Positions 39,576 to 64,000 of a stretch of DNA of 64,000 nt are shown piece after piece. A model generated the notes under the pieces. The model was not told where the DNA came from. It did not search any database and saw only the letters and a list, made by a program, of their open reading frames with translations. Numbering within the stretch: the first letter of the stretch is position 1; each line of letters begins with the position of its first letter. A program made the translations under genes and the position numbers. The DNA is from Atriophallophorus winterbourni. Taxonomy: Eukaryota > Platyhelminthes > Trematoda > Plagiorchiida > Microphallidae. Location of the stretch: positions 1 through 64,000 of the forward strand of contig JACCGJ010008607.1 in assembly GCA_013407085.1 (NCBI GenBank). The letters run 5' to 3'.

Positions 39576-39876
39576 AATAAATTATGATCTAAACGAATAA
39601 TTACAATCTTTGATTTTCGGGCATATGGTTCCTCAATGGGTCACAAACATTTTTACTCCATGGTCTGATACTCGCTTCTAGAGAACAACCAAAATGTGCG
39701 ATACTTTCGGAACCAATTGAACAATTTCTTTCCATTTGTTAGTTGCACATTATATGAAACCAGTGTTGCGCGGATGTTTGCAAACCAAAACGAGGCAGTG
39801 TGTTTCCCTACCGATTTCACAGTGCTAACCTATTATGTTTTCCTGTTTCAGACTGTGGAACGAACGTGGTTGGAAA

Positions 39877-41106
39877 ATGTTGCTAAACGTTTCGCTTGTA
39901 CAGAACGATGAGCTTTCGCGTGTGTTGCCACGCTGGACGGAACTGCTGCACGCTGTTTACGGTCATCCAATTTTTGGAACGCATCGCTTGCTTGGCGTTC
40001 GTGTGTTGTTCACCATGGTCTACGCGATTTTATCGATACTTGGAACGTTGTGCAACATATTTGTGGTCTGCATACTCGTATTCATGCGACATCGAACATT
40101 GAACAATATTACAAACCTGTTTGTGCTCACGTTGGCAATTTCGGACATTCTATTGTGCGGGTTCAACATGCCAATGCAAGCGTATTTCGAGTTGTACGAG
40201 ATGGCGTTCTCGGGCGTCACTTGCAAAATACTGACCAGCATTTTCACTCTCCCTATGCACGTGTCTTGCTTGACAATGCTCCTGATTGCATTCGATCGTT
40301 ACTTGATCATTATTTATCCACATCGCTCGAGAATGTCTCGAAAAGCTGCGATTGTTTTAATACTTCTCGTGACCTTGTTTAGCGTGTTGGCTAGTATACC
40401 GATAATCATGTACACGCAATCCAGTACCCCTATTTGGCCAATCATCGCATCGGATAGGAATTCGAAACCCTCTAGTGTGAGAGATTATTCATACTGCATC
40501 GAGCAATGGCCCAATCCAAACACGCGGCTGACGTATTCATTCCTCACGTTTCTATTGCAATTTTTCTTCCCATTGGTTTTGACCTTGAGCTTGTATGGAC
40601 ATATTTTTGTTCGCTTAAATGTGCGCCCACTCAAGCAAAATGCGCTCGAACGAACAAAACGCACGAACCACATTCTCATACAGATCGTTGCTTGCTTTGT
40701 GATGTGCTGGACACCGTGGACGTGTTTCTCATTATGGTTGGAAACCCAAGCGTATCACACACATCACTGGATATCGACAGGTCCGGTGGAAAAGACTGGA
40801 ACGAATGTGCACATGTTGATATTCGAGCTGATTTCGGCAGTGAATTCCAGTCACACTGTGCACGCGCAACAAAACCAGGCAAATGAAAGCGTGTTAGCGG
40901 ATGACACGAGTCTCCCAAAATTCGGTGTGCCATCAGCGGAGAATATGACCAAACTAATCGATATATTTCTCAAGTTGCTCGCAATGAGTTCGGGGTGTAT
41001 TAACCCGTGGCTTTATGGATGGTTGAATAAATGTTTTTGCTCTTCGAAAGGCAGGCAGTGGAGAAGATTGTTTGCACCAACCTTTGCGCGGCATCATGAC
41101 AAGTGA
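39877..41106 (+). CDS. Class A GPCR, neuropeptide Y/F receptor type
   Basis: A rhodopsin-family receptor for a peptide ligand at the cell surface, coupled to G proteins. Numbering here is from an in-frame ATG at 39835, but that ATG lies in a polypyrimidine tract ending TTTCAG at 39851. A splice acceptor there makes 39877 (residue 15) the better start, or the exon continues a frame from upstream. Seen: TM1 with N74, TM2 LAISD (D104), C130, TM3 ending DRY 154-156, TM4 170-193, TM5 235-258, TM6 CWTP 291-294, TM7 NPWLY 390-394, and Cys 400/402 for palmitoylation. YCIEQWP at 220-226 is the second-loop signature of NPY/NPF receptors. N-glycosylation sites lie near the N-terminus (NVS) and in loop 3. 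The third extracellular loop, about 304-370, is far longer than usual. Confidence 0.85.
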   Translation: MLLNVSLVQNDELSRVLPRWTELLHAVYGHPIFGTHRLLGVRVLFTMVYAILSILGTLCNIFVVCILVFMRHRTLNNITNLFVLTLAISDILLCGFNMPMQAYFELYEMAFSGVTCKILTSIFTLPMHVSCLTMLLIAFDRYLIIIYPHRSRMSRKAAIVLILLVTLFSVLASIPIIMYTQSSTPIWPIIASDRNSKPSSVRDYSYCIEQWPNPNTRLTYSFLTFLLQFFFPLVLTLSLYGHIFVRLNVRPLKQNALERTKRTNHILIQIVACFVMCWTPWTCFSLWLETQAYHTHHWISTGPVEKTGTNVHMLIFELISAVNSSHTVHAQQNQANESVLADDTSLPKFGVPSAENMTKLIDIFLKLLAMSSGCINPWLYGWLNKCFCSSKGRQWRRLFAPTFARHHDK

Positions 41107-44065: not shown

Positions 44066-44273
44066 ACAACAACGTGCCCTACACAACCGTTCACAATCCG
44101 ACCCGAAATCAATTGCATCGCCTAACACACTAGCTAGCATGGTATAAGAGAAAACGCGTACCACACATTGAACCAGTGTCACACACACTCGGCATCGCCA
44201 ACTTCTACATCAACTAACCGCGTGGGACAAAGCATACGCGAACTTAGCATCGCTTCATTTCAACGCCCAGTAC

Positions 44274-44626
44274 TCTTGAGTAACTAATGACGCTCTGGGA
44301 TCTTTGCCTCCACACTCCATTCAAGTTCAATGGAAAATTGTATGAGCAGATCAAAGGAATTCCAATGGGGTTGCCTATCTCTGGACTGATAGTGGAAGGT
44401 GTAATGTAGAGATTGGAACGCATTACCATTCCTCTAATAGAACCGAAACTTAGGGTACGCTACGTGGACGACACCTTCGTCAAAATCAAGAGATTGCAAG
44501 TCGAATACCCTCATAGACCACTGAATTGTGTCTTCACGGGAATAAAGTTCACGAAAGAAACAGAAATCAACAGGTGCCTACCGTTCTTGGATGTCCTCGT
44601 CACTAGAAGCGACACAGGATTCCTCC
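44274..44626 (+). mobile_element. Penelope-like RT fragment in 5S spacer, insert 1
   Basis: 353 bp between direct repeats 44225-44273 and 44627-44675. It encodes Penelope RT motifs KFNGKLYEQIKGIPMGLPIS, RVRYVDDTF (active-site YVDD) and PFLDVLVTR. Start text is LWDLCLHTPF. One TAG stop after VEGVM. Confidence 0.85.
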
Positions 44627-45227
44627 GGACAAAGCATACGCGAACTTAGCATCGCTTCATTGCAAAGTCCAGTACGCCTGACCTCAACGCGCAAGCCACA
44701 CCCTTCTAACCAATTCCACCCGACTGACGGCCCGTCTACTTCCCCGCCGATGCCCGATCCGGCCATTATTGGGTACAATGGCTGACCGCCTACACACCAC
44801 CATGCCGCCGGAGTGCGTGCGTAGAATGAGCGAAGTGTATTATTAACGCAACGCTCGTGTTTCGCGGTCAAAGCGACGGGTTTGCGAAGTCGCTCGTTGC
44901 GTGTGGTCGTATAGTCGTACGTGCGAGTGATAATTCGATTTTGCGCTTGTGGGTTGCTGTGCCGTGGACTGTGTGCGGAACTCGGCGAGGCTGGCTCGCG
45001 AGAGTGGGAACGAACCGTGCGTGGTTGCGAAAGTAGTGTTCACATGTTTCGCTTTTTCCTATAAACGATCTACTTATTAGTAGTGATGTTTGAAAACAAA
45101 ACGAGGGCGCTTTGTTTGCAAGCGCATTCAGCGACCGTAGGCAGCGTCGCGGGTGGTACGCAAGCATACACACGTTTGCCGAACAATGGGTGCAAAACGT
45201 AGTGAAAATTCGGAGAATTCACTTGCG

Positions 45228-45231
45228 AAAA
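45228..45231 (-). terminator. Pol III T-run after 5S copy 1
   Basis: TTTT directly after the 5S three-prime end on the minus strand. Present after all copies except copy 4, where it is broken to GTGTTC. Confidence 0.8.
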
Positions 45232-45350
45232 CGGCCGCGACACCCGGTATTCCCAGCCGGTCACCCATGCAAGTACTAACCGGGCCCAACGTTGCTTAAC
45301 TTCGGTGATCGGACGAGAACCGGTGTTTCCAACGTGGTATGGTCGCGGCC
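45232..45350 (-). rRNA. 5S rRNA copy 1 (consensus)
   Basis: 5S rRNA of the large ribosomal subunit, about 119 nt. On the minus strand it opens GGCCGCGACCATACCACG and closes GGGTGTCGCGGCC, giving a perfect 9-bp helix I. The internal Pol III control region is present (AAGTTAAGCAACGTTGGGCC, then GGTTAGTACTTGCATGGG). A TTTT terminator follows. Confidence 0.97.
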
Positions 45351-45370
45351 GAACGAGTGCGCACCACAGG

Positions 45371-45380
45371 CCTATATCAA
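45371..45380 (-). promoter_or_regulatory. TATA-like element upstream of 5S
   Basis: TTGATATAGG on the minus strand at positions -21 to -30 of copy 1. It is kept at the same place before essentially every copy, in both spacer classes, which supports a role in Pol III start selection as in other invertebrate 5S genes. Confidence 0.6.
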
Positions 45381-45644
45381 ACCAAACCGACAATAACTAC
45401 GCACCACACACGTACACAACACCTAAACCGCTGCCCGCACAACAACGTGCCCTACACAACCGTTCACAATCCGACCCGAAATCAATTGCATCGCCTAACA
45501 CACTAGCTAGCATGGTATAAGAGAAAACGCGTACCACACATTGAACCAGTGTCACACACTCGGCATCGCCAACTTCTACATCAACTAACCGCGTGGGACA
45601 AAGCATACGCGAACTTAGCATCGCTTCATTTCAACGTCCAGTAC

Positions 45645-45997
45645 TCTTGAGTAACTAATGACGCTCTTGGATCTTTGCTTCCACACTCAATTCAAGTTCA
45701 ATGGAAAATTGTATGAGCAGATCAAAGGAATTCCAATGGGGTTGCCTATCTCTGGACTGATAGTGGAAGGTGTAATGTAGAGATTGGAACGCATTACCAT
45801 TCCTCTAATAGAACCGAAACTTAGGGTACGCTACGTGGACGACACCTTCGTCAAAATCAAGAGATTGCAAGTCGAATACCCTCATAGACCACTGAATTGT
45901 GTCTTCACGGGAATAAAGTTCACGAAAGAAACAGAAATCAACAGGTGCCTACCGTTCTTGGATGTCCTCGTCACTAGAAGCGACACAGGATTCCTCC
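45645..45997 (+). mobile_element. Penelope-like RT fragment in 5S spacer, insert 2
   Basis: Repeats at 45596-45644 and 45998-46046. Haplotype LDLCFHTQF, same TAG stop as insert 1. Confidence 0.85.
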
Positions 45998-46602
45998 GGA
46001 CAAAGCATACGCGAACTTAGCATCGCTTCATTGCAAAGTCCAGTACGCCTGACCTCAACGCGCAAGCCACACCCTTCTAACCAATTCCACCCGACTGACG
46101 GCCCGTCTACTTCCCCGCCGATGCCCGATCCGGCCATTGTTGGGTACAATGGCTGACCGCCTACACACCACCATGCCGCCGGAGTGCGTGCGTAGAATGA
46201 GCGAAGTGTATTATTAACGCAACGCTCGTGTTTCGCGGTCAAAGCGACGGGTTTGCGAAGTCGCTCGTTGCGTGTGGTCGTATAGTCGTACGTGTGAGTG
46301 ATAATTCGATTTTGCGCTTGTGGGTTGCTGTGCCGTGGACTGTGTGCGGAACTCGGCGAGGCTGGCTCGCGAGAGTGGGAACGAACCGTGCGTGGTTGCG
46401 AAAGTAGTGTTCACATGTTTCGCTTTTTCCTATAAACGATCTACTTATTAGTAGTGATGTTTGAAAACAAAACGAGGGCGCTTTGTTTGCAAGCGCATTC
46501 AGCGACCGTAGGCAGCGTCGCGGGTGGTACGCAAGCATACACACGTTTGCCGAACAATGGGTGCAAAACGTAGTGAAAATTCGGAGAATTCACTTGCGAA
46601 AA

Positions 46603-46721
46603 CGGCCGCGACACCCGGTATTCCCAGCCGGTCACCCATGCAAGTACTAACCGGGCCCAACGTTGCTTAACTTCGGTGATCGGACGAGAACCGGTGTTTC
46701 CAACGTGGTATGGTCGCGGCC
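46603..46721 (-). rRNA. 5S rRNA copy 2 (consensus)
   Basis: Identical to copy 1 over the gene. Unit spacing 1371 bp. Confidence 0.97.
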
Positions 46722-47015
46722 GAACGAGTGCGCACCACAGGCCTATATCAAACCAAACCGACAATAACTACGCACCACACACGTACACAACACCTAAACC
46801 GCTGCCCGCACAACAACGTGCCCTACACAACCGTTCACAATCCGCCCCGAAATCAATTGCATCGCCTAACACACTAGCTAGCATGGTATAAGAGAAAACG
46901 CGTACCACACATTGAACCAGTGTCACACACTCGGCATCGCCAACTTCTACATCAACTAACCGCGTGGGACAAAGCATACGCGAACTTAGCATCGCTTCAT
47001 TTCAACGTCCAGTAC

Positions 47016-47364
47016 TCTTGAGTAACTAATGACGCTCTTGGATCTTTGCTTCCACACTCAATTCAAGTTCAATGGAAAATTGTATGAGCAGATCAAAGGA
47101 ATTCCAATGGGGTTGCCTATCTCTGGACTGATAGTGGAAGGTGTAATGTAGAGATTGGAACGCATTACCATTCCTCTAATAGAACCGAAACTTAGGGTAC
47201 GCTACGTGGACGACACCTTCGTCAAAATCAAGAGATTGCAAGTCGAATACCCTCATAGACCACTGAATTGTGTCTCACGGAATAAAAATTCCGAGAGAAA
47301 CATAAATCAACAGGTGCCTACCTTCTGGATGTCCCGTCACTAGAAGCGACACAGGATTGCCTCC
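47016..47364 (+). mobile_element. Penelope-like RT fragment in 5S spacer, insert 3
   Basis: LDLCFHTQF haplotype. The last third (after 47275) has several small indels, and the right repeat at 47365 is damaged. The downstream spacer is type B, so this insert sits at an A/B junction. Confidence 0.8.
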
Positions 47365-47951
47365 GACAAAGCATACGCGACACTTAGCATCGCTTCCTTG
47401 CAAAGTCCAGTACGCCTGACTCAACACGCAAGCCACACCCTGCTAACCCATTCCACCCGACTGACGGCCCGTCTACTTGCCCGCCGATGCCCGATCCGGC
47501 CATTGTTGAGTACAATGGCTGCCCGCCTACACACGACCATGCAGCCGGAGTGCGTGCGTAGAATGAGCGAACTGTATTGTTAACGCAACGCTGGTGTTTC
47601 GCGGTCAATGCGACGGGTTTGCGAAGTCGCTGGTGGCGTGTGCTCGTATAGTCAGTCGTACGTGTGAGTGATATTTGGATTTTGCGCTTGTCGGTTGCTG
47701 TGCGCTGGACTGTATGCCGAACTGGGCGAGTCTGGCTCGCGTGGGTGGTAAAGTAGTGTTCAGACGTTCCGCTTCTTTCCTATAAACGCTCTACTAATTA
47801 GTAGTGATGTTTGAAACAAAACGATGGCGCTTTGTTTGCAAGCTCATTCAGCGACGGTAGACAGCGCCGCGGGTGGTACGCAAGCATACACCCGTTTGTC
47901 GAGCAATGGGCGCAAAACGTAGTGAAAATTCCGGGGATTCACTTGCGAAAA

Positions 47952-48070
47952 CGGCCGCGACACCCGGTATTCCCAGCCGGTCACCCATGCAAGTACTAAC
48001 CGGGCCCAACGTTGCTTAACTTCGGTGATCGGACGAGAACCGGTGTTTCCAACGTGGTATGGTCGCGGCC
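47952..48070 (-). rRNA. 5S rRNA copy 3 (consensus, type B spacer)
   Basis: Same gene sequence as copy 1, but the adjoining spacer is type B with a 24-bp deletion shared only with copy 6. Confidence 0.97.
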
Positions 48071-48314
48071 GAACGAGTGCGCACCACAGGCCTATATCAA
48101 ACCAAACCCACAATAACTACGCACCGCACGCGTACACAACACCTAAACCGCTGCCCGCAAAACTACGTGCCGTACACAACCGTTCACATTCCGCGCGCAA
48201 ACAATTGCATCGCCTAACAGACTAGCTAGCGTGGTATAAGAGAAAACGCGTACCACAAATCGAACCTGTGTCACACACCCAGCATCTACAACTTCTACAT
48301 CAACTAACCGCGTG

Positions 48315-48363
48315 GGACAAAGCATACGCGAACTTAGCATCGCTTCATTGCAACGCCCAGTAC
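48315..48363. repeat. Single-copy 49-bp site without Penelope insert (spacer 3-4)
   Basis: GGACAAAGCATACGCG through CCAGTAC occurs once and continues directly into spacer. Other insert-free sites are at 49290-49338, 50265-50313 and 51216-51264. The last has the base pattern of right-hand repeats (GCAAAGTCC), while 49290 and 50265 have the left-hand pattern (TTCAACGTCC). Confidence 0.85.
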
Positions 48364-48926
48364 GCCTGACCTCAACACGCAAGCCACACCCTGGTAACCC
48401 ATTCCACCCGACTGACGGCCCGTCTACTTGCCCGCCGATGCCCGATCCGGCCATTGTTGAGTACAATGGCTGACCGCCTACACACGACCATGCAGCCGGA
48501 GTGCGTGCGTAGAATGAGCGAACTGTATTGTTAACGCAACGCTGGTGGGTTTTCGCGGTCAATGCGACGGGTTTGCGAAGTCGCTGGTGGCGTGTGCTCG
48601 TATAGTCCGTCGTACGTGTGAGTGATATTTGGATTTTGCGCTTGTCGGTTGCTGTGCCCTGGACTGTATGCCGAACTAGGCGAGTCTGGCTCGCGAGAGT
48701 GGGAACGAAGCGGGCGTGGGTGGGAAAGTAGTGTTCAGACGTTCCGCTTCTTTCCTATAAACGCTCTACTAATTAGTAGTGATGTTTGAAACAAAACGAT
48801 GGCGCTTTGTTTGCAAGCTCATTCCGCGACGGTAGACAGCGCCGCGGGTGGTACGCAAGCATACACCCGTTTGCCGAGCAATGGGCGCAAAACGTAGTGA
48901 AAATTCGGATAATTCACTTGCGAACA

Positions 48927-49045
48927 CGGCAGCGACACCCGGTATTCCCAGCCGGTCACCCATGCAAGTACTAACCGGGCCCAACGTTGCTTAACTTCGG
49001 TGATCGGACGAGAACCGGTGTTTCCAACGTGGTATGGTCGCGGCC
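48927..49045 (-). rRNA. 5S rRNA copy 4 (variant, lost terminator)
   Basis: RNA position 115 is U instead of G, giving a C-U mismatch in helix I. The T4 terminator reads GTGTTC. It may be non-functional or read through. Confidence 0.9.
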
Positions 49046-49901
49046 GAACGAGTGCGCACCACAGGCCTATATCAAACCAAACCGACAATAACTACGCACC
49101 ACACGCGTACACAACACCTACACCGCTGCCCGCACAACTACGTGCCGTACACAACCGTTCACATTCCGCCCGCAAACAATTGCATCGCCTAACACACTAG
49201 CTAGCATGGTATAAGAGAAAACGCGTACCACAAATTCAATCAGTGTCACACACCCAGCACCTACAACTTCTACATCAACTAACCGCGTGGGACAAAGCAT
49301 ACGCGAACTTAGCATCGCTTCATTTCAACGTCCAGTACGCCTGACCTCAACACGCAAGCCACACCCTGCTAACCCATTCCACCCGACTGACGGCCCATCT
49401 ACTTGCCCGCCGATGCCCGATCCGGCCATTGTTGAGTACAATGGCTGACCGCCTACACACGACCATGCAGACGGAGTGCGTGCGTAGAATGAGCGAACTG
49501 TATTGTTTACGCAACGCTGTTGGGTTTTCGCGGTCAATGCGACGGGTTTGCGAAGTCGCTGGTGGCGTGTGCTCGTATAGTCCGTCGTACGTGTGAGTGA
49601 TATTTGGATTTTGCGCTTGTCGGTTGCTGTGCCCTGGACTGTATGCCGAACTGGGCGAGTCTGGCTCGCGAGAGTGGGAACGAAGCGGGCGTGGGTGGGA
49701 AAGTAGTGTTCAGACGTTCCGCTTCTTTCCTATAAACGCTCTACTAATTAGTAGTGATGTTTGAAACAAAACGATGGCGCTTTGTTTGCAAGCTCATTCC
49801 GCGACGGTAGACAGCGCCGCGGGTGGTACGCCCGCATACACCCGTTTGCCGAGCAATGGGCGCAAAACGTAGTGAAAATTCGGATAATTCACTTGCGAAA
49901 A

Positions 49902-50020
49902 CGGCCGCGACACCCGGTATTCCCAGCCGGTCACCCATGCAAGTACTAACCGGGCCCAACGTTGCTTAACTTCGGTGATCGGACGAGAACCGGTGTTTCC
50001 AACGTGGTATGGTCGCGGCC
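49902..50020 (-). rRNA. 5S rRNA copy 5 (consensus)
   Basis: Consensus gene in a short type B unit, 975 bp from copy 4. Confidence 0.97.
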
Positions 50021-50852
50021 GAACGAGTGCGCACCACAGGCCTATATCAAACCAAAGCGACAATAACTACGCACCACACGCGTACACAACACCTAAACCG
50101 CTGCCCGCACAACTACCTGCCGTACACAACCGTTCACATTCCGCCCGCAAACAATTGCATCGCCTAACACACTAGCTAGCATGGTATTAGAGAAAACGCG
50201 TACCACAAATTCAACCAGTGTCACACACCCAGCATCTACAACTTCTACATCAACTAACCGCGTGGGACAAAGCATACGCGAACTTAGCATCGCTTCATTT
50301 CAACGTCCAGTACGCCTGACCTCAACACGCAAGCCACACCCTGCTAACCCATTCCACCCGACTGACGGCCCGTCTACTTGCCCGCCGATGCCCGATCCGG
50401 CCATTGTTGAGTACAATGGCTGACCGCCTACACACGACCATGCAGCCGGAGTGCGTGCGTAGAATGAGCGAACTGTATTGTTAACGCAACGCTGGTGTTT
50501 CGCGGTCAATGCGACGGGTTTGCGAAGTCGCTGGTGGCGTGTGCTCGTATAGTCAGTCGTACGTGTGAGTGATATTTGGATTTTGCGCTTGTCGGTTGCT
50601 GTGCGCTGGACTGTATGCCGAACTGGGCGAGTCTGGCTCGCGTGGGTGGTAAAGTAGTGTTCAGACGTTCCGCTTCTTTCCTATAAACGCTCTACTAATT
50701 AGTAGTGATGTTTGAAACAAAACGATGGCGCTTTGTTTGCAAGCTCATTCAGCGACGGTAGACAGCGCCGCGGGTGGTACGCAAGCATACACCCGTTTGT
50801 CGAGCAATGGGCGCAAAACGTAGTGAAAATTCCGGGGATTCACTTGCGAAAA

Positions 50853-50971
50853 CGGCCGCGACACCCGGTATTCCCAGCCGGTCACCCATGCAAGTACTAA
50901 CCGGGCCCAACGTTGCTTAACTTCGGTGAGCGGACGAGAACCGGTGTTTCCAACGTGGTATGGTCGCGGCC
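50853..50971 (-). rRNA. 5S rRNA copy 6 (one variant)
   Basis: A to C at RNA position 42 (50930). The surrounding unit is almost the same as that of copy 3. Confidence 0.95.
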
Positions 50972-51820
50972 GAACGAGTGCGCACCACAGGCCTATATCA
51001 AACCAAACCGACAATAACTACGCACCACACGCGTACACAACACCTAAACCGCTGCCCGCACAACTACGTGCCGTACACAACCGTTCACATTCCGCCCGCA
51101 AACAATTGCATCGCCCAACACACCAGCTAGCATGGTATCAGAGAAACGCGTACCACAATTCAACCAAGTGTCACCACCCATCCATCTACAACTCTCTACA
51201 CAACTACGCAGCGTGGGACAAAGCATACGCGAACTTAGCATCGCTTCATTGCAAAGTCCAATACGCCTGACCTCAACGCGCAAGCCACACCCTTCTAACC
51301 AATTCCACCCGACTGACGGCCCGTCTACTTCCCCGCCGATGCCCGATCCGGCCATTATTGGGTACAATGGCTGACCGCCTACACACCACCATGCCGCCGG
51401 AGGGCGTGCGTAGAATGAGCGAAGTGTATTATTAACGCAACGCTCGTGTTTCGCGGTCAAAGCGACGGGTTTGCGAAGTCGCTCGTTGCGTGTGGTCGTA
51501 TAGTCGTACGTGCGAGTGATAATTCGATTTTGCGCTTGTGGGTTGCTGTGCCGTGGAGTGTGTGCGGAACTCGGCGAGGCTGGCTCGCGAGAGTGGGAAC
51601 GAACCGTGCGTGGTTGCGAAAGTAGTGTTCACATGTTTCGCTTTTTCCTATAAACGATCTACCTATTAGTAGTGATGTTTGAAAACAAAACGAGGGCGCT
51701 TTGTTTGCAAGCGCATTCAGCGACCGTAGGCAGCGTCGCGGGTGGTACGCAAGCATACCCACGTTTGCCGAACAATGGGTGCAAAACGTAGTGAAAATTC
51801 GGAGAATTCACTTGCGAAAA

Positions 51821-51939
51821 CGGCCGCGACACCCGGTATTCCCAGCCGGTCACCCATGCAAGTACTAACCGGGCCCAACGTTGCTTAACTCCGGTGATCG
51901 GACGAGAACCGGTGTTTCCAACGTGGTATGGTCGCGGCC
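51821..51939 (-). rRNA. 5S rRNA copy 7 (one variant)
   Basis: A to G at RNA position 49 (51891), at the start of the internal A-box area. Spacer returns to type A. Confidence 0.95.
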
Positions 51940-52235
51940 GAACGAGTGCGCACCACAGGCCTATATCAAACCAAACCGACAATAACTACGCACCACACAC
52001 GTACACAACACCTAAACCGCTGCCCGCACAACAACGTGCCCTACACAACCGTTCAAAATCCGACCCGAAATCAATTGCATCGCCTAACACACTAGCTAGC
52101 ATGGTATAAGAGAAAACGCGTACCACACATTGAACCAGTGTCACACACACTCGGCATCGCCAACTTCTATATCAACTAACCGCGTGGGACAAAGCATACG
52201 CGAACTTAGCATCGCTTCATTTCAACGCCCAGTAC

Positions 52236-52585
52236 TCTTGAGTAACTAATGACGCTCTGGGATCTGTGCCTCCACACTCCATTCAAGTTCAATGGAAAAT
52301 TGTATGAGCAGATCAAAGGAATTCCAATGGGGTTGCCTATCTCTGGACTGATAGTGGAAGGTGTAATGTAGAGATTGGAACGCATTACCATTCCTCTAAT
52401 AGAACCGAAACTAGGGTACGCTACGTGGACGACACTCGTCAAAATCAAGAGATTGCAAGTCGAATACCCTCATAGACCACTGAACTCTGTCTTCACGGGA
52501 ATAAAGTTCACGAAAGAAACAGAAATCAACAGGTGCCTACCGTTCTTGGATGTCCTCGTCACTAGAAGCGACACAGGATTCCTCC
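52236..52585 (+). mobile_element. Penelope-like RT fragment in 5S spacer, insert 4
   Basis: Left repeat 52187-52235. Start text LWDLCLHTPF. Indels near 52412-52437 break the YVDD region. First insert after the four empty spacers. Confidence 0.8.
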
Positions 52586-53201
52586 GGACAAAAGCATACG
52601 CGAACTTAGCACCTTCATTGCAAAAGTCCAGTACGCTGACCTAACGCGCAATCCAACACCCTTCTACCCAATTCCACCCGACGACGGCCCGTCATACCGT
52701 CCCCGCCGATGCCCGATCCGGCCATTATTGGGTACAATGCTGACCGACCTACACACCACCATGCCGCCTGGAGTGGCGGTGCGTAGAATGAAGCGAAGTG
52801 TTTATTACCGCAACGCTACGTGTTTTCGCGGTCAAAGCGACGGGTTTTGCGAAGCTCGCTCGTTGCGTGTGGTTTCGTATGTCCGTACGTGGCGAGTGAT
52901 ATTCGATGTTGCGCTTGTTGGGTTGCTTGTCCGTGGACTGTGTTGCGGAACTCGGTCGCAGGCTGGCTCCGAGAGTGGGAACGAACCGTGCGTGGTTGCG
53001 AAAGTAGTGTTCACGTGTTTCGCTTTTCCTATAAACGATCTACTTATTAGTAGTGATGTTTGAAAACAAAACGAGGGCGCTTTGTTTGCAAGCGCATTCA
53101 GCGACCGTAGGCAGCGTCGCGGGTGGTACGCAAGCATACACACGTTTGTCGAACAATGGGTGCAAAACGTAGTGAAAATTCGGAGAATTCACTTGCGAAA
53201 A

Positions 53202-53320
53202 CGGCCGCGACACCCGGTATTCCCAGCCGGTCACCCATGCAAGTACTAACCGGGCCCAACGTTGCTTAACTTCGGTGATCGGACGAGAACCGGTGTTTCC
53301 AACGTGGTATGGTCGCGGCC
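53202..53320 (-). rRNA. 5S rRNA copy 8 (consensus)
   Basis: Consensus gene. The spacer on its lower-coordinate side contains the indel-rich patch 52400-53000. Confidence 0.96.
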
Positions 53321-53616
53321 GAACGCGTGCGCACCACAGGCCTATATCAAACCAAACCGACAATAACTACGCACCACACACGTACACAACACCGAAACCG
53401 CTGCCCGCACAACAACGTGCCCTACACAACCGTTCACAATCCGACCCGAAATCAATTGCATCGCCTAACACACTAGCTAGCATGGTATAAGAGAAAACGC
53501 GTACCACACATTGAACCAGTGTCACACACACTCGGCATCGCCAACTTCTACATCAACTAACTGCGTGGGACAAAGCATACGCGAACTTAGCATCGCTTCA
53601 TTTCAACGCCCAGTAC

Positions 53617-53969
53617 TCTTGAGTAACTAATGACGCTCTGGGATCTTTGCCTCCACACTCCATTCAAGTTCAATGGAAAATTGTATGAGCAGATCAAAAG
53701 AATTCCAATGGGGTTGCCTATCTCTGGACCGATAGTGGAAGGTGTAATGTAGAGATTGGAACGCATTACCATTCCTCTAATAGAACCGAAACTTAGGGTA
53801 CGCTACGTGGACGACACCTTCGTCAAAATCAAGAGATTGCAAGTCGAATACCCTCATAGACCACTGAATTGTGTCTTCACGGGAATAAAGTTCACGAAAG
53901 AAACAGAAATCAACAGGTGCCTACCGTTCTTGGATGTCCTCGTCACTAGAAGCGACACAGGATTCCTCC
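53617..53969 (+). mobile_element. Penelope-like RT fragment in 5S spacer, insert 5
   Basis: Repeats start at 53568 and 53970. LWDLCLHTPF haplotype with the TAG stop; YVDD kept. Confidence 0.85.
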
Positions 53970-54574
53970 GGACAAAGCATACGCGAACTTAGCATCGCTT
54001 CATTGCAAAGTCCAGTACGCCTGACCTCAACGCGCAAGCCACACCCTTCTAACCAATTCCACCCGACTGACGGCCCGTCTACTTCCCCGCCGATGCCCGA
54101 TCCGGCCATTGTTGGGTACAATGGCTGACCGCCTACACACCACCATGCCGCCGGAGTGCGTGCGTAGAATGAGCGAACTGTATCATGAACGCAACGCTCG
54201 TGTTTCGCGGTCAAAGCGACGGGTTTGCGAAGACGCTCGTTGCGTGTGGTCGTATAGTCGTACGTGTGAGTGATAATTCGATTTTGCGCTTGTGGGTTGC
54301 TGTTCCCTGGACTGTGTGCGGAACTCGGCGAGGCTGGCTCGCGAGAGTGGGAACGAACCGTGCGTGGTTGCGAAAGTAGTGTTCACATGTTTCGCTTTTT
54401 CCTATAAACGATCTACTTATTAGTAGTGATGTTTGAAAACAAAACGAGGGCGCTTTGTTTGCAAGCGCATTCAGCGACCGTAGGCAGCGTCGCGGGTGGT
54501 ACGCAAGCATACACACGTTTGCCGAACAATGGGTGCAAAACGTAGTGAAAATTCGGAGAATTCACTTGCGAAAA

Positions 54575-54693
54575 CGGCCGCGACATCCGGTATTCCCAGC
54601 CGGTCACCCATGCAAGTACTAACCGGGCCCAACGTTGCTTAACTTCGGTGATCGGACGAGAACCGGTGTTTCCAACGTGGTATGGTCGCGGCC
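54575..54693 (-). rRNA. 5S rRNA copy 9 (one variant)
   Basis: G to A at RNA position 108 (54586), just before helix I. Confidence 0.95.
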
Positions 54694-54987
54694 GAACGAG
54701 TGCGCACCACAGGCCTATATCAAACCAAACCGACAATCACTACGCACCACACACGTACACAACACCTACACCGCTGCCCGCACAACAACGTGCCCTACAC
54801 AACCGTTCACAATCCGACCCGAAATCAATTGCATCGCCTAACACACTAGCTAGCATGGTATAAGAGAAAACGCGTACCGCACATTGAACCAGTGTCACAC
54901 ACTCGGCATCGTCAACTTCTACATCAACTAACCGCGTGGGACAAAGCATACGCGAACTTAGCATCGCTTCATTTCAACGTCCAGTAC

Positions 54988-55363
54988 TATTGAGTAACTA
55001 ATGACGCTCTTCGATCTTTGCCTCCACACTCAATTCAAGTTCAATGGAAAATTGTATGAGCAGATCGAAGGAATTCCAATGGGGTTGCCTATCTCTGGAC
55101 TGATAGTGGAAGGTGTAACGTGGAGGTTGGAACGCATTACCATTCCGCTAATAGAACCGAAACTTAGGGTACGCTACGTGGACGACACCTTCGTCAAAAT
55201 CAAGAGATTGCAAGTCGAATACCCTCATAGACCACTGAATTGTGTCTTCACGGAAATAAAGTTCACGAAAGAAACAGAAATCAACAGGTGCATACCGTTC
55301 TTGGATGTCCTCGTCACTAGAAGCGACACAGGATTCCTCCGGACAAAGCATACGCGAACTTAG
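54988..55363 (+). mobile_element. Penelope-like RT fragment in 5S spacer, insert 6 (uninterrupted ORF)
   Basis: The only copy in which the reading frame is open across the insert (ORF 55001-55363, 120 codons). The usual TAG is TGG (VEGVTWRLERI). Start text is LFDLCLHTQF. The ORF ends in RTKHTRT, read partly from the right 49-bp repeat at 55341. Too short to be an active enzyme. Confidence 0.85.
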
Positions 55364-55945
55364 CATCGCTTCATTGCAAAGTCCAGTACGCCTGACCTCA
55401 ACGCGCAAGCCACACCCTTCTAACCAATTCCACCCGATTGACGGCCCGTCTACTTCCCCGCCGATGCCCGATCCGGCCATTATTGGGTACAATGGCTGAC
55501 CGCCTACACCCCACCATGCCGCCGGAGTGCGTGCGTAGAATGAGCGAAGTGTATTATTAACGCAACGCTCGTGTTTCGCGGTCAAAGCGACGGGTTTGCG
55601 AAGTCGCTCGTTGCGTGTGGTCGTATAGTCGTACGTGCGAGTGATAATTCGATTTTGCGCTTGTGGGTTGCTGTGCCGTGGACTGTGTGCGGAACTCGGC
55701 GAGGCTGGCTCGCGAGAGTGGGAACGAACCGTGCGTGGTTGCGAAAGTAGTGTTCACGTGTTTCGCTTTTTCCTATAAACGATCTACTTATTAGTAGTGA
55801 TGTTTGAAAACAAAACGAGGGCGCTTTGTTTGCAAGCGCATTCAGCGACCGTAGGCAGCGTCGCGGGTGGTACGCAAGCATACACACGTTTGTCGAACAA
55901 TGGGTGCAAAACGTAGTGAAAATTCGGAGAATTAACTTGCGAAAA

Positions 55946-56064
55946 CGGCCGCGACACCCGGTATTCCCAGCCGGTCACCCATGCAAGTACTAACCGGGCC
56001 CAACGTTGCTTAACTTCGGTGATCGGACGAGAACCGGTGTTTCCGACGTGGTATGGTCGCGGCC
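55946..56064 (-). rRNA. 5S rRNA copy 10 (one variant)
   Basis: U to C at RNA position 20 (56045). Confidence 0.95.
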
Positions 56065-56360
56065 GAACGAGTGCGCACCACAGGCCTATATCAAACCAAA
56101 CCGACAATAACTACGCACCACACACGTACACAACACCTAAACCGCTGCCCGCACAACAACGTGCCCTACACAACCGTTCACAATCCGACCCGAAATCAAT
56201 TCCATCGCCTAACACACTAGCTAGCATGGTATAAGAGAAAACGCGTACCACACATTGAACCAGTGTCACACACACTCGGCATCGCCAACTTCGACATCAA
56301 CTAACCGCGTGGGACAAAGCATACGCGAACTTAGCATCGCTTCATTTCAACGCCCAGTAC

Positions 56361-56713
56361 TCTTGAGTAACTAATGACGCTCTGGGATCTTTGCCTCCAC
56401 ACTCCATTCAAGTTCAATGGAAAATTGTATGAGCAGATCAAAGGAATTCCAATGGGGTTGCCTATCTCTGGACTGAGAGTGGAAGGTGTAATGTAGAGAT
56501 TGGAACGCATTACCATTCCTCTAATAGAACCGAAACTTAGGGTACGCTACGTGGACGACACCTTCGTCAAAATCAAGAGATTGCAAGTCGAATACCCTTA
56601 TAGACCACTGAATTGTGTCTTCACGGGAATAAAGTTCACGAAAGAAACATAAATCAACAGGTGCCTACCGTTCTTGGATGTCCTCGTCACTAGAAGCGAC
56701 ACAGGATTCCTCC
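56361..56713 (+). mobile_element. Penelope-like RT fragment in 5S spacer, insert 7
   Basis: LWDLCLHTPF haplotype. It carries the TAG stop plus a TAA after FTKET. Confidence 0.85.
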
Positions 56714-57318
56714 GGACAAAGCATACGCGAACTTAGCATCGCTTCCTTGCAAAGTCCAGTACGCCTGACCTCAACGCGCAAGCCACACCCTTCTAACCAA
56801 TTCCACCCGACTGACGGCCCGTCTACTTCCCCGCCGATGCCCGATCGGGCCATTGTTGGGTACAATGGCTGACCGCCTACACCCCACCATGCCGCCGGAG
56901 TGCGTGCGTAGAATGAGCGAAGTGTATTATTAACGCAACGCTCGTGTTTCGCGGTCAAAGCGACGGGTTTGCGAAGTCGCTCGTTGCGTGTGGTCGTATA
57001 GTCGTACGTGCGAGTGATAATTCGATTTTGCGCTTGTGGGTTGCTGTGCCGTGGACTGTGTGCGGAACTCGGCGAGGCTGGCTCGCGAGAGTGGGAACGA
57101 ACCGTGCGTGGTTGCGAAAGTAGTGTTCACGTGTTTCGTTTTTTCCTATAAACGATCTACTTATTAGTAGTGATGTTTGAAAACAAAACGAGGGCGCTTT
57201 GTTTGCAAGCGCATTCAGCGACCGTAGGCAGCGTCGTGGGTGGTACGCAAGCATACACACGTTTGCCGAACAATGGGTGCAAAACGTAGTGAAAATTCGG
57301 AGAATTCACTTGCGAAAA

Positions 57319-57437
57319 CGGCCGCGACACCCGGTATTCCCAGCCGGTCACCCATGCAAGTACTAACCGGGCCCAACGTTGCTTAACTTCGGTGATCGGA
57401 CGAGAACCGGTGTTTCCAACGTGGTATGGTCGCGGCC
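57319..57437 (-). rRNA. 5S rRNA copy 11 (consensus)
   Basis: Consensus gene. Its upstream flank carries GACCTG where other copies have GGCCTG beside the TATA-like element. Confidence 0.96.
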
Positions 57438-57717
57438 GAACGAGTGCGCACCACAGGTCTATATCAAACCAAACCGACAATAACTACGCACCACACACGT
57501 ACACAACACCTAAACCGCTGCCCGCACAACAACGTGCCCTACACAACCGTTCACAATCCGACCCGAAATCAATTGCATTGCCTAACACACTAGCTAGCAT
57601 GGTATAAGACATTGAACCAGTGTCACACGCACTCGGCATCGCCAACTTCTACATCAACTAACCGCGTGGGACAAAGCATACGCGAACTTAGCATCGCTTC
57701 ATTTCAACGCCCAGTAC

Positions 57718-58070
57718 TCTTGAGTAACTAATGACGCTCTGGGATCTTTGCCTCCACACTCCATTCAAGTTCAATGGAAAATTGTATGAGCAGATCAAAA
57801 GAATTCCAATGGGGTTGCCTATCTCTGGACTGATAGTGGAAGGTGTAATGTAGAGATTGGAACGCATTACCATTCCTCTAATAGAACCGAAACTTAGGGT
57901 ACGCTACGTGGACGACACCTTCGTCAAAATCAAGAGATTGCAAGTCGAATACCCTTATAGACCACTGAACTGTGTCTTCACGGGAATAAAGTTCACGAAA
58001 GAAACATAAATCAACAGGTGCCTACCGTTCTTGGATGTCCTCGTCACTAGAAGCGACACAGGATTCCTCC
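57718..58070 (+). mobile_element. Penelope-like RT fragment in 5S spacer, insert 8
   Basis: Shares the extra TAA stop and a His to Tyr change (EYPYRP) with insert 7, so the two are sister units. Confidence 0.85.
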
Positions 58071-58672
58071 GGACAAAGCATACGCGAACTTAGCATCGCT
58101 TCATTGCAAGTCCGTACGCCTGACCTCAACGCGCAAGCCCACCCTTTCTACCAATTCCCCCCGACTGACGGCCCCGTCTCCTTTCCCCCCGATGCCTCGA
58201 TCCGGCCATTATTGGGTGCCAATGGCTGACCGCCTCAACACCACCATGCCGCCGAGGTGCGTGCGTATAATGAGCGAAGTTAATTATAACGCAAACGCTC
58301 ACACGTGTTCGCGGTCAAAGCGACGGGTTTTGCGAGTCGCTCGTTGCGTGTGGTCGTATAGTCGTACGTGCGATGATAATTTCGATTTGCGCTGTGGTTG
58401 CTGGCCGTGGACTGGGTGCGGAACTTCGCGAGGCCTGTCTCGCGAGAGTGTGACGAACCGTGGCGGGGTTTGCGAACGTAGGTTCACATGTTTCGCTTTT
58501 TCCTATACGTCTACTTATAGTAGTATTTTTGAAAACAAAACGAGGGCGCTTTGTTTTGCAAGCGCAATTCAGGCGACCGTAGGCGCTGCGCGGGTGGTAC
58601 GCAAGGCACCACACGTTTGCCGGAACAATGGGTGCAAAACGTAGTGAAAATTCGAGAATTCACTTGCGAAAA

Positions 58673-58799
58673 CGGCCCGCGAACACCCTTATTCCCAGCC
58701 GGTCACCCATGCAATTACTAACCGGGCCCAAACGTTTGCTTAACTTCGGTGATTGGGACGGACGAGAACGCGGTGTTTCCACGTGGTATGGTCGCGGCC
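58673..58799 (-). pseudogene. 5S rRNA copy 12, indel-damaged
   Basis: The gene is about 127 nt with several one- to five-base indels (for example GGCCCGCG, CCAAACGTTTGC, GATTGGGACGGACGAG). The whole stretch 58080-58980 is similarly damaged in coding, gene and spacer alike. That looks more like uncorrected consensus than natural decay. Confidence 0.8.
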
Positions 58800-59088
58800 A
58801 AGCGAGTGCGCACCACAGGCCTATATCAAACCAACGACAATAACTACCACCACACACGTACCACACCTAAATACCGCTTGTCCCGCCCAACAACGTGCCT
58901 ACACACCTTCACAATCGACCCGCAAATCATTCCTCGCTCTAAACACTAGCTAGCTGGTATAAGAGAAAACCGTACCACGTCGCATTGAACCAGTGTCACA
59001 CACTCGGCATCGCCAACTTCTACATCAACTAACCGCGTGGGACAAAGCATACGCGAACTTAGCATCGCTTCATTTCAACGTCCAGTAC

Positions 59089-59441
59089 TCTTGAGTAACT
59101 AATGACGCTCTTGGATCTTTGCTTCCACACTCAATTCAAGTTCAATGGAAAATTGTATGAGCAGATCAAAGGAATTCCAATGGGGTTGCCTATCTCTGGA
59201 CTGATAGTGGAAGGTGTAATGTAGAGATTGGAACGCATTACCATTCCTCTAATAGAACCGAAACTTAGGGTACGCTACGTGGACGACACCTTCGTCAAAA
59301 TCAAGAGATTGCAAGTCGAATACCCTCATAGACCACTGAATTGTGTCTTCACGGGAATAAAGTTCACGAAAGAAACAGAAATCAACAGGTGCCTACCGTT
59401 CTTGGATGTCCTCGTCACTAGAAGCGACACAGGATTCCTCC
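59089..59441 (+). mobile_element. Penelope-like RT fragment in 5S spacer, insert 9
   Basis: LDLCFHTQF haplotype like inserts 2 and 3. The spacer just after it lacks about 30 bp at 59578. Confidence 0.85.
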
Positions 59442-60019
59442 GGACAAAGCATACGCGAACTTAGCATCGCTTCATTGCAAAGTCCAGTACGCCTGACCTC
59501 AACGCGCAAGCCACACCCTTCTAACCAATTCCACCCGACTGACGGCCCGTCTACTTCCCCGCCGATGCCCGATCCGGTAACACACCACCATGCCGCCGGA
59601 GTGCGTGCGTAGAATGAGCGAAGTGTATTATTCACGCAACGCTCGTGTTTCGCGGTCAAAGCGACGGGTTTGCGAAGTCGCTCGTTGCGTGTGGTCGTAT
59701 AGTCGTACGTGTGAGTGATAATTCGATTTTGCGCTTGTGGGTTGCTGTGCCGTGGAGTGTGTGCGGAACTCGGCGAGGCTGGCTCGCGAGAGTGGGAACG
59801 AACCGTGCGTGGTTGCGAAAGTAGTGTTCACATGTTTCGCTTTTTCCTATAAACGATCTACTTATTAGGAGTGATGTTTGAAAACAAAACGAGGGCGCTT
59901 TGTTTGCAAGCGCATTCAGCGACCGTAGGCAGCGTCGCGGGTGGTACGCAAGCATACCCACGTTTGCCGAACAATGGGTGCAAAACGTAGTGAAAATTCG
60001 GAGAATTCACTTGCGAAAA

Positions 60020-60138
60020 CGGCCGCGACACCCGGTATTCCCAGCCGGTCACCCATGCAAGTACTAACCGGGCCCAACGTTGCTTAACTTCGGTGATCGG
60101 ACGAGAACCAGTGTTTCCAACGTGGTATGGTCGCGGCC
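60020..60138 (-). rRNA. 5S rRNA copy 13 (one variant)
   Basis: C to U at RNA position 29 (60110). Confidence 0.95.
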
Positions 60139-60432
60139 GAACGAGTGCGCACCACAGGCCTATATCAAACCAAACCGACAATAACTACGCACCACACACG
60201 TACACAACACCTAAACCGCTGCCCGCACAACAACGTGCCCTACACAACCGTTCACAATCCGCCCCGAAATCAATTGCATCGCCTAACACACTAGCTAGCA
60301 TGGTATAAGAGAACACGCGTACCACACATTGAACCAGTGTCACACACTCGGCATCGCCAACTTCTGCATCAACTAACCACGTGGGACAAAGCATACGCGA
60401 ACTTAGCATCGCTTCATTTCAACGTCCAGTAC

Positions 60433-61341
60433 TCTTGAGTAACTAATGACGCTCTGGGATCTTTGCCTCCACACTCCATTCAAGTTCAATGGAAAATTGT
60501 ATGAGCAGATCAAAGGAATTCCAATGGGGTTGCCTATCTCTGGACTGATAGTGGAAGGTGTAATGTAGAGATTGGAACGCATTACCATTCCTCTAATAGA
60601 ACCGAAACTTAGGGTGATCAAAGTATTCAAAGTTTAATGGTACTAAAAAGCATTTAGCTTAACATACCATAGGATGGCGTTATGAGGTATATACAATAAA
60701 AAGAAGAACAGGAAAACTCAATGTCATGTAATCGTATCAAGTTTTGGGTTGTCTCTCAAGTGTTTGTCCAAATTAGCTTTAAAAATATCCAGGTTGGCTG
60801 AGTGTGTAACAGTGGATGGGAGGGTGTTCCATGTGAAACTTACACGTACAGCATACGAATATCTTCGACAGTTCAGTCTTGAAGTGGGAATAAGCACTGA
60901 AAGTTCATGTTTCCGACTGGCACGGGTTGGCGAGCGTGTGAAAAGTTTGGACAAGGGATGGTTAGGGACGTGCATAATATTGTACATCAGTATGAGGTCA
61001 CCTCTTAGTCGACGACAGTGAAAGTCGAAAAGATTGAGACTCCTCAAACGTTCTTCATATGGTTTAGCAGCTAGTCCGGGTACAAGCTTTGTGGTTCGAT
61101 GGTAAATACGCTGCGAAGCATTGATGTCTTCTGAATCCAGGGTGACCACGCCTGAACATCGTAACGCCATCGCTACGCGTGGACGACACCTTCGTCAAAA
61201 TCAAGAGATTGCAAGTCGAATACCCTCATAGACCACTGAATTGTGTCTACACGGGAATAAAGTTCACGAAAGAAACAGAAATCAACAGGTGCCTACCGTT
61301 CTTGGATGTCCTCGTCACCAGAAGCGACGCAGGATTCCTCC
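60433..61341 (+). mobile_element. Penelope-like RT fragment in 5S spacer, insert 10, split by CR1
   Basis: The 353-bp fragment is interrupted at about 60616-61171. Penelope text before (GIPMGLPIS) and after (VDDTFVKIKRL) the interruption is otherwise normal. Confidence 0.85.
60616..61171 (-). mobile_element. 5'-truncated CR1-like LINE insertion inside a Penelope fragment
   Basis: About 556 bp found only in this unit. On the minus strand it encodes the CR1 polymerase end: RTTKLVPGLAAKPYEERL, RRLRGDLILMYNIMH, VRVSFTWNTLPSTV, FKANLDKHL and a stop. The three-prime end at the left closes ACCATTAAACTTTGAATACTTTGATC-like with a short tandem ACTTTGAAT tail. About 6 bp of target (ACGCTA) seem missing, and no target duplication is evident. 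Confidence 0.85.
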
Positions 61342-61946
61342 GGACAAAGCATACGCGAACTTAGCATCGCTTCATTGCAAAGTCCAGTACGCCTGACCTC
61401 AACGCGCAAGCCACACCCTTCTAACCAATTCCACCCGACTGACGGCCCGTCTACTTCCTCGCCGATGCCCGATCCGGCCATTATTGGGTACAATGGCTGA
61501 CCGCCTACACACCACCATGCCGCCGGAGTGCGTGCGTAGAATGAGCGAAGTGTATTATTAACGCAACGCTCGTGTTTCGCGGTCAAAGCGACGGGTTTGC
61601 GAAGTCGCTCGTTGCGTGTGGTCGTATAGTCGTACGTGCGAGTGATCATTCGATTTTGCGCTTGTGGGTTGCTGTGCCGTGGACTGTGTGCGGAACTCGG
61701 CGAGGCTGGCTCGCGAGAGGGGGAACGAACCGTGCGTGGTTGCGAAAGTAGTGTTCACATGTTTCGCTTTTTCCTATAAACGATCTACTTATTAGTAGTG
61801 ATGTTTGAAAACAAAACGAGGGCGCTTTGTTTGCAAGCGCATTCAGCGACCGTAGGCAGCGTCGCGGGTGGTACGCAAGCATACACACGTTTGCCGAACA
61901 ATGGGTGCAAAACGTAGTGAAAAATCGGAGAATTCACTTGCGAAAA

Positions 61947-62065
61947 CGGCCGCGACACCCGGTATTCCCAGCCGGTCACCCATGCAAGTACTAACCGGGC
62001 CCAACGTTGCTTAACTTCGGTGATCGGACGAGAACCGGTGTTTCCAACGTGGTATGGTCGCGGCC
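61947..62065 (-). rRNA. 5S rRNA copy 14 (consensus, last)
   Basis: Consensus gene. It is 1927 bp from copy 13 because of the CR1 insertion in the preceding spacer. Confidence 0.97.
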
Positions 62066-62351
62066 GAACGAGTGCGCACCACAGGCCTATATCAAACCAA
62101 ACCGACAATAACTACGCACCACACACGTACACAACACCGAAACCGCTGCCCGCACAACAACGTGCCCTACACAACCGTTCACAATCCGACCCGAAATCAA
62201 TTGCATCGCCTAACACACTAGCTAGCATGGTATAAGAGAAAACGCGTACCACACATTGAACCATTGTCCACACTCCGGCATCGCCAACTTCTACATCAAC
62301 TAAACCGCGGGGACAAAGCATACGCGAACTTGCATCGCTTTCATTTCATGT

Positions 62352-62445
62352 AAGGCGATAAAGTCTCTTGTCGAAAGAATTCGGTTTTGCTCATGCTGAT
62401 TGTTAGAGCAAAGTCTCTGCATGCCAACGAAGAACGAAAGATTCG
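62352..62445 (-). mobile_element. RTE-like scrap at right edge of 5S array
   Basis: GCGATAAAGTCTCTTG to TGCTCATGCTGATTG to TCTGCATGCCAACGAAGAAC matches 18898-18982 of the RTE-like copy. It begins at the point where the 5S spacer breaks off. Confidence 0.6.
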
Positions 62446-63629: not shown

Positions 63630-63671
63630 CTATCTATCTATCTATCTATCTATCTAGCCTATCTATCTATC

Positions 63672-63736
<65 letters not shown>

Positions 63737-63738
63737 GC

Positions 63739-63834
<96 letters not shown>

Positions 63835-63849
63835 ACTATCTATCTATTA

Positions 63850-63902
<53 letters not shown>

Positions 63903-63904
63903 AC

Positions 63905-64000
<96 letters not shown>
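63630..64000. repeat. TATC tetranucleotide microsatellite
   Basis: About 370 bp of CTAT repeats with a few one- to three-base interruptions (63656, 63671, 63737, 63834, 63848, 63902). It continues past the window end. Confidence 0.97.

What the first reader, a model, noticed from the sequence alone, without database searches (positions are those of the whole stretch)
44070..62350. A Penelope RT fragment co-amplified with 5S rRNA genes
Ten of 14 spacers carry the same 353-bp Penelope RT piece (motifs GIPMGLPIS, YVDD, PFLDVL) at one site, flanked by 49-bp direct copies of the spacer. Four spacers have one 49-bp copy and no insert. The fragment now spreads by rDNA homogenisation and not by transposition. 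The direct repeat could be a long target duplication or a product of recombination at the GGACAAAG match between element and spacer.
Basis: partly seen in the sequence, partly recalled or inferred. Interest (0 to 1): 0.85.

Follow-up and report, generated by a model that had tools for sequence, protein, structure and literature searches.

The report
Dead Penelope fragment in 5S spacers
In an array of 5S ribosomal RNA genes, probably from a flatworm, most spacers carry the same dead 353-base scrap of a Penelope retrotransposon, which seems to have landed once and then been copied along with the genes: a neat but not fundamentally new example of parasitic DNA hitchhiking on a repeated gene.

Summary
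Fourteen 5S genes lie on the minus strand (45232-62065). Ten of 14 spacers carry one insert with the same ends: 353 bp in 7, 348 and 350 bp in two, split by a secondary insertion of about 555 bp in one. Two 49-bp copies of the spacer flank it; four spacers have one copy and no insert. The insert is an internal piece of a Penelope-like reverse transcriptase, cut at both ends, without sign of coding constraint, and differs between copies about as much as the spacer. One founding insertion, then spread with the 5S unit, explains this best. How the 49-bp duplication arose stays open; the right junction lies on a match of 5 to 8 bases between element and spacer. Three empty spacers belong to a separate spacer lineage (6-10% diverged) and may be ancestral; the fourth is a recombinant between the lineages at the repeat. 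Both lineage switches and the right array edge lie at the repeat, but also in or beside error-rich sequence, so they may be assembly joins. Retrotransposons in 5S arrays and amplification of dead elements by rDNA turnover are known; this is a new example.

The parts
45232..62065 (-). array of 14 5S rRNA genes (lower ends 45232, 46603, 47952, 48927, 49902, 50853, 51821, 53202, 54575, 55946, 57319, 58674, 60020, 61947)
   Evidence: Rfam RF00001
44225..44675 (+). S0: left 49-bp copy 44225-44273, Penelope RT insert 44274-44626, right copy 44627-44675
45596..46046 (+). S1: left copy 45596-45644, insert 45645-45997, right copy 45998-46046
46967..47413 (+). S2: left copy 46967-47015, insert 47016-47363 (348 bp, error-rich 3' part), right copy 47364-47413; spacer changes from lineage A to B at the end of the right copy or just after it
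48315..48363 (+). S3: single 49-bp copy, no insert, lineage B spacer
49290..49338 (+). S4: single 49-bp copy, no insert, lineage B spacer
50265..50313 (+). S5: single 49-bp copy, no insert, lineage B spacer
51216..51264 (+). S6: single 49-bp copy with the markers of the right copy; B spacer on its left, A spacer on its right
52187..52634 (+). S7: left copy, insert 52236-52585 (350 bp), right copy 52586-52634
53568..54018 (+). S8: left copy, insert 53617-53969, right copy 53970-54018
54939..55389 (+). S9: left copy, insert 54988-55340 (variant without the internal TAG), right copy 55341-55389
56312..56762 (+). S10: left copy, insert 56361-56713, right copy 56714-56762
57669..58117 (+). S11: left copy, insert 57718-58070, right copy 58071-58117
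59040..59490 (+). S12: left copy, insert 59089-59441, right copy 59442-59490
60384..61390 (+). S13: left copy 60384-60432, insert 60433-61341 split by a secondary insertion at about 60616-61170, right copy 61342-61390
62066..62349 (+). S14: last, truncated spacer; the array ends inside the 49-bp copy
   Evidence: read

Best explanation
A piece of a Penelope-like element's reverse transcriptase gene entered one 5S spacer once, about 295 bp upstream of a 5S start and antisense to the gene. The right edge formed on a match of 5 to 8 bases (GGACA, perhaps GGACAAAG) between element and spacer, and 49 bp of spacer ended up on both sides. The carrying unit then multiplied by unequal crossing-over and gene conversion inside the tandem array. 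The insert is dead: it lacks both ends and the endonuclease, carries stop codons and drifts with the spacer. Single origin and spread with the unit are shown by the sequence as far as one assembly can show them; the turnover process itself is inferred from established knowledge of tandem arrays. The route of the founding insertion is inferred. I rank microhomology-guided copying (target-primed reverse transcription primed inside the element RNA, or template switching during repair) somewhat ahead of an ordinary insertion later trimmed by recombination at the same match.
For: Same ends. Shared in-frame TAG in 9 of 10 and TAA in 10 of 10. Differences between insert copies (mean 2.5% over the 6 clean units of 10) are like those of the spacer arms (2.2% left, 1.4% right). 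Variants run across the insert edge: T at left-copy position 42 goes with T and A at two insert sites in S1, S2, S9 and S12. No sign of coding constraint: codon variants 3 synonymous, 13 non-synonymous, 2 involving stops in 7 of 10 copies, against 236:759:58 for all single changes. Relatives read on past the right edge with a V-Y-R-K-like motif where the insert passes into spacer. The 5S gene served by the spacer (to its left) scores 109.6 bits or more for 8 of the 9 insert-bearing spacers that have such a gene in the array. S4 and S5 match the left copy over exactly 49 bp.
Against: S9's insert has nine private differences, far more than its spacer arms, so part of it could have another history. 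With the four error-rich units included the means become 4.2% (left), 2.8% (insert) and 7.0% (right), so the agreement rests on the clean set. Parts of the array are error-rich, so unit order and counts could change in a better assembly. No Penelope element of the same genome, no reads and no related species could be examined.
Confidence: 0.82

Rival explanations
1. Internally primed target-primed reverse transcription: the minus strand was nicked just left of GGACAAAG, its 3' end annealed to GGACAAAG inside the element RNA, synthesis ran leftwards and stopped early, and the other strand was cut 49 bp away, giving a 49-bp target duplication.
For: The right copy begins exactly at the element/spacer match, as this predicts. 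Thr stands at that codon in 77 of 81 relatives and Lys follows in 27 of 81. The chance of a junction overlap of at least 5 is 0.005 and of at least 8 is 0.0001 by a simple formula.
Against: The duplications named in the passages that I saw on rotifer Penelope are 8, 9 and 10 bp (PMC3846280). The three fluke proteins seen (P0001, P0049, P0109) have Cys, not Lys, at the last codon. The element's own bases past the junction are unknown.
Confidence: 0.3
2. A longer Penelope copy inserted first and then lost its 3' part by recombination between its GGACAAAG and the GGACAAAG of a neighbouring empty unit or of a long target duplication; the 49 bp is then only the distance from insertion point to match.
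For: Explains the loss of the endonuclease half and 3' end and needs no 49-bp stagger. A rotifer Penelope copy is described with an internal microhomology-mediated deletion (passage of PMC3846280).
Against: Needs a second event on at most 8 bp of identity; no longer form was seen among the 10 inserts.
Confidence: 0.3
3. Template switching or patch repair: a break or stalled fork in the spacer was mended with a copy of Penelope DNA or RNA from elsewhere, and 49 bp of spacer were copied again on return.
For: A mid-element piece with both ends missing and a microhomology at one edge fits repair patches such as class 2 templated insertions (abstract of PMC5110952).
Against: The left edge shows no match that could be checked without the source element.
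Confidence: 0.25
4. The empty spacers are secondary losses by recombination between the two 49-bp copies and not ancestral empty sites.
For: S6 has right-copy markers with B spacer on the left (9 of 10 columns) and A spacer on the right (41 of 41), the mark of an exchange at the repeat. S4 and S5 are also compatible with an exchange near the 3' end of the repeat.
Against: S3-S5 are lineage B at all 10 left and all 41 right columns (columns chosen for this) and 6.1-9.0% (left) and 8.1-10.1% (right) from clean A units, so three of the four would need to have lost the insert in a lineage that is never seen with it on both sides.
Confidence: 0.25
5. The mixed order of A and B units is an assembly artefact that joins two haplotypes or loci.
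For: Both A/B switches (S2, S6) lie at the repeat and in or beside error-rich stretches 47238-47410 and 51148-51252; the right array edge also lies in the repeat, with irregular bases just before it (by eye).
Against: Error-rich stretches also occur without a switch (52632-52977, 58115-58970). S3 and S4 have no error-rich bin and S5 only a short deletion that S2 shares.
Confidence: 0.4

Closest known systems
Degenerate and truncated R2 elements multiplied by 28S rDNA turnover in Bacillus rossius (PMC4370867; abstract and passages seen)
   Same: dead retroelement copies present many times in rDNA, explained by unequal recombination and not by retrotransposition
   Different: R2 inserts specifically in the 28S gene and disrupts it; here a Penelope scrap lies in a 5S spacer
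Jockey-like elements in 5S arrays of Tribolium freemani (PMC11202950; passages seen)
   Same: retrotransposons regularly placed in 5S arrays
   Different: elements of about 5 kb beside satellite DNA; here a 353-bp internal piece at one site of the spacer
Non-LTR element associated with 5S rDNA in the fish Erythrinus erythrinus (PMC2944182; search listing only; that the element is Rex3 is recalled)
   Same: transposable element and 5S rDNA spread together
   Different: spread over chromosomes by cytogenetics; not a single-site fragment
Mutsu elements that target 5S genes in zebrafish (named in a passage of PMC11202950)
   Same: retroelement in 5S rDNA
   Different: about 5.5 kb and target-specific; here no sign of targeting

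Membership tests
Penelope-like element | reverse transcriptase of Penelope type | tested here: met
   6 of 95 candidates at E <= 0.001, best 53% to Dicrocoelium dendriticum; one relative has a GIY-YIG domain. Against: Pfam RVT_1 reaches only E 0.036, under its cut-off, on the fragment itself.
Penelope-like element | GIY-YIG endonuclease | tested here: not met
   the insert ends within the RT region and what follows is spacer: a fragment, not a complete element
Penelope-like element | pseudo-LTRs | not tested
   no element ends are present in the insert
rDNA-targeting retrotransposon (R2, Mutsu type) | repeated independent insertion at one target | tested here: not met
   in this array shared stops, variants and both internal ends point to one event; other arrays not seen
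unit of a concertedly evolving 5S array | insert shared by many units and diverging like the spacer | tested here: met
   insert 2.5%, left arm 2.2%, right arm 1.4% mean difference among 6 clean units of 10; with all 10 units 2.8%, 4.2%, 7.0%
retrotransposition product with target duplication | flanking duplication made at insertion | tested here: inconclusive
   49-bp copies flank the insert, but recombination at GGACAAAG would give the same picture

The most novel reading that the evidence does not exclude
A Penelope reverse transcriptase primed inside its own RNA on an 8-base match in a 5S spacer and left a 49-bp target duplication; that duplication now serves as the exchange point at which insert-bearing and insert-free 5S lineages recombine (S2, S6, array edge), so one aberrant insertion has become a recombination site that shapes the array.
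Probability: 0.12. Interest if true: 0.5.

Novelty: new member of a known kind. Interest (0 to 1): 0.33.

Why it matters
It is a natural marker for 5S rDNA homogenisation: one insertion, two spacer lineages and filled and empty units in one array make exchange between units directly visible. It also warns that fragments of a retrotransposon can reach high copy number without transposition, which repeat surveys could misread as activity.

Tried and rejected
Independent insertions at one preferred site: rejected because the 10 copies share both internal ends (with the exceptions told above), stop codons and linked variants. A still coding RT: rejected. A repeat of 55 bp instead of 49: considered, since the 6 bases after it agree at 4, but S4 and S5 match the left copy for exactly 49 bp. 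Chance similarity to RT: rejected by E = 2e-26.

Led nowhere: the exact 24-base start of the repeat in viral contigs gave 0 matches; the insert protein gave no confirmed relative in viral contigs (0 of 4 pattern stretches) or genome contigs (0 of 47); one spacer unit against plasmids gave no match.

Literature: ten searches. Those aimed at Penelope with 5S listed 7 of 7 papers, 20 of 27 and 2 of 2; by titles, starts of abstracts and the passages that I saw of PMC12274263 and PMC12294053 none is about a Penelope piece in 5S spacers. The library holds open-licence papers only. Also seen and not used: passages of PMC12910113 and abstract of PMC2671141.

Limits of the counts: one search scanned 139 fetched proteins with a pattern that 81 matched; 16 of the 139 are receptor proteins, and among the named Penelope proteins most are from Spirometra and Sparganum, so residue frequencies lean to those. 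One search found 882 proteins at E <= 1e-8 among 7984 scored candidates (a capped set) and listed 120. The clean set (S0, S1, S8, S9, S10, S13) leaves out S2, S7, S11 and S12. One search used 7 of 10 inserts (S2, S7 and S13 dropped for indels or interruption). The A and B core sets were chosen by eye, so that the core units are uniform at the diagnostic columns by construction; only S2, S6, S7, S9, S11 and S12 are tested there. The 60-column bins behind the error-rich stretches were called at 6 or more differences.

Full report
What is there. The window holds 14 5S rRNA genes, all on the minus strand, between 45232 and 62065. I number the spacers S0 (left of the first gene, partial on its far side) to S13, with a truncated S14 on the right. 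Ten of the 14 spacers S0-S13 carry the insert (S0, S1, S2, S7-S13) and four do not (S3-S6). Distances between gene starts are 1346-1381 bp with the insert, 951-975 bp without, and 1927 bp for the unit with the secondary insertion. The insert is 353 bp in 7 of 10. In S1 it begins 295 bp from the 5' end of the 5S gene (gene ends at 45350, insert begins at 45645).

What the insert is. In frame on the plus strand, so antisense to the 5S genes, it encodes a stretch of reverse transcriptase with GIPMGLPIS, YVDD and PFLDVL. Searched as part of a longer frame it gave 6 homologues of 95 candidates: Dicrocoelium dendriticum (53% identity), an unnamed jgi protein with a GIY-YIG domain, three from Spirometra and one from Hetaerina americana (GIY-YIG confirmed). 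A profile search found 882 proteins at E <= 1e-8 among 7984 scored candidates; of the 120 listed most named ones are from Spirometra or Sparganum, with one each from Clonorchis sinensis and Opisthorchis viverrini. The relatives continue past the right edge with a V-Y-R-K-like motif and the rest of the protein, whereas the insert passes into spacer. So this is an internal piece of a Penelope-like element with neither end. Pfam's RVT_1 model alone reaches only E 0.036 on it. The host is probably a flatworm, perhaps a fluke: among named hits the receptor gene at 39829-41106 is closest to Heterobilharzia americana (48%), then Schmidtea and several flukes. The species was not established.

The 49-bp copies. 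Left and right copies differ at 2 to 4 of 49 positions in the 8 units that can be compared without gaps; positions 36 and 40 differ in all 8. The left copy of the S1 type is identical to the single copy of S4 and S5 over exactly 49 bp, and right after it the filled units have TCTTGA (S9 TATTGA) where the empty ones have GCCTGA. The right copy starts at GGACAAAG. In 81 proteins with a matching pattern (of 139 scanned), Thr stands at the corresponding codon in 77 and Lys follows in 27, so GGACA is very probably element sequence and AAG may be. The three fluke proteins seen read Cys instead of Lys, which weakens the 8-base version. An overlap of 5 or more arises by chance at 0.005, of 8 or more at 0.0001 (formula).

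How it spread. The copies share their ends, the TAG (9 of 10) and the TAA (10 of 10). Insert copies differ by 2.5% on average among six clean units, against 2.2% and 1.4% for the left and right spacer arms; with the four error-rich units included the figures are 2.8%, 4.2% and 7.0%. There is no sign of coding constraint. Variants in the left copy and in the insert go together (S1, S2, S9, S12), while S13 carries one type on the left and the other in the insert, which suggests exchange inside the unit. One event plus array turnover explains this. S9 is the main irregularity, with nine private insert differences.

Filled and empty lineages. Outside insert and repeat, units fall into lineage A (filled) and lineage B (S3-S5). 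Clean A units other than S0 differ from B units by 6.1-9.0% in the left arm and 8.1-10.1% in the right arm. Ten diagnostic columns lie in the left arm and 41 from position 40 of the right copy onward. S2 is A at all 10 left columns and at the first right one, and B at 38 of the other 40 (two are neither). S6 is B in 9 of 10 left columns and A in all 41 right ones, with right-copy markers in its single 49-bp copy. S6 is therefore a recombinant, real or assembled, and not an ancestral empty site; S3-S5 may be ancestral. The right array edge also falls inside the repeat. Both switches coincide with error-rich sequence and the array edge has irregular bases just before it (by eye), so I would not call the repeat a recombination hotspot without reads.

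Mechanism. The founding event gave a piece cut at both ends, a match at the right edge and a 49-bp duplication. Internally primed target-primed reverse transcription, trimming of a longer insertion by recombination at the match, and template switching or patch repair all produce this. The passages that I saw on rotifer Penelope give duplications of 8, 9 and 10 bp and one insertion without a duplication that formed its 5' junction through microhomology (PMC3846280); 49 bp would be long by that measure. I give the three routes similar weight.

Comparison. Dead elements spread by rDNA turnover are described for R2 in a stick insect (PMC4370867). Retrotransposons in 5S arrays are described for Jockey-like elements in Tribolium freemani, and Mutsu in zebrafish is named there (PMC11202950). 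The present case is a new member of that kind, with a Penelope piece in the spacer. The searches listed no earlier report of it in the open-licence library.

Noticed in passing
60616-61170: A secondary insertion of about 555 bp splits the S13 insert. Its minus strand has an open frame (60724-61194) that looks like the C-terminal end of a non-LTR element by recall; Pfam gave no match. Weak matches of 76% and 69% lie at 17826-17884 and 8963-9069. No clear target duplication by eye.
   Followed up: partly
47238-47410, 51148-51252, 52632-52977, 58115-58970: Stretches rich in substitutions and short indels against sister units, as from poorly polished long reads (origin inferred); the last covers the weak 5S gene 58674-58799. 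The end of S14 near 62349 looks similar by eye.
   Followed up: partly
54988-55340: The S9 insert has nine private changes, including TAG to TGG, that its neighbours lack.
   Followed up: partly
62355-62435: DNA just right of the array matches 18899-18979 at 86%, inside a reverse-transcriptase-like frame, and 10077-10164 at 80%: the array abuts a LINE-like piece.
   Followed up: partly
45351-45395 and equivalents: A TATAT stretch begins 23 bp upstream of all 14 5S genes, and a run of four T follows within 15 bp of the 3' end in 13 of 14, as expected for Pol III units by recall.
   Followed up: partly
39829-41106: Open frame for a rhodopsin-type receptor related to neuropeptide F receptors of flatworms.
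   Followed up: partly
23811-24503: Minus-strand frame with an alpha-galactosidase A match (E 4e-9, above the cut-off).
   Followed up: no
63630-64000: CTAT microsatellite of about 92 copies that reaches the end of the window.
   Followed up: no
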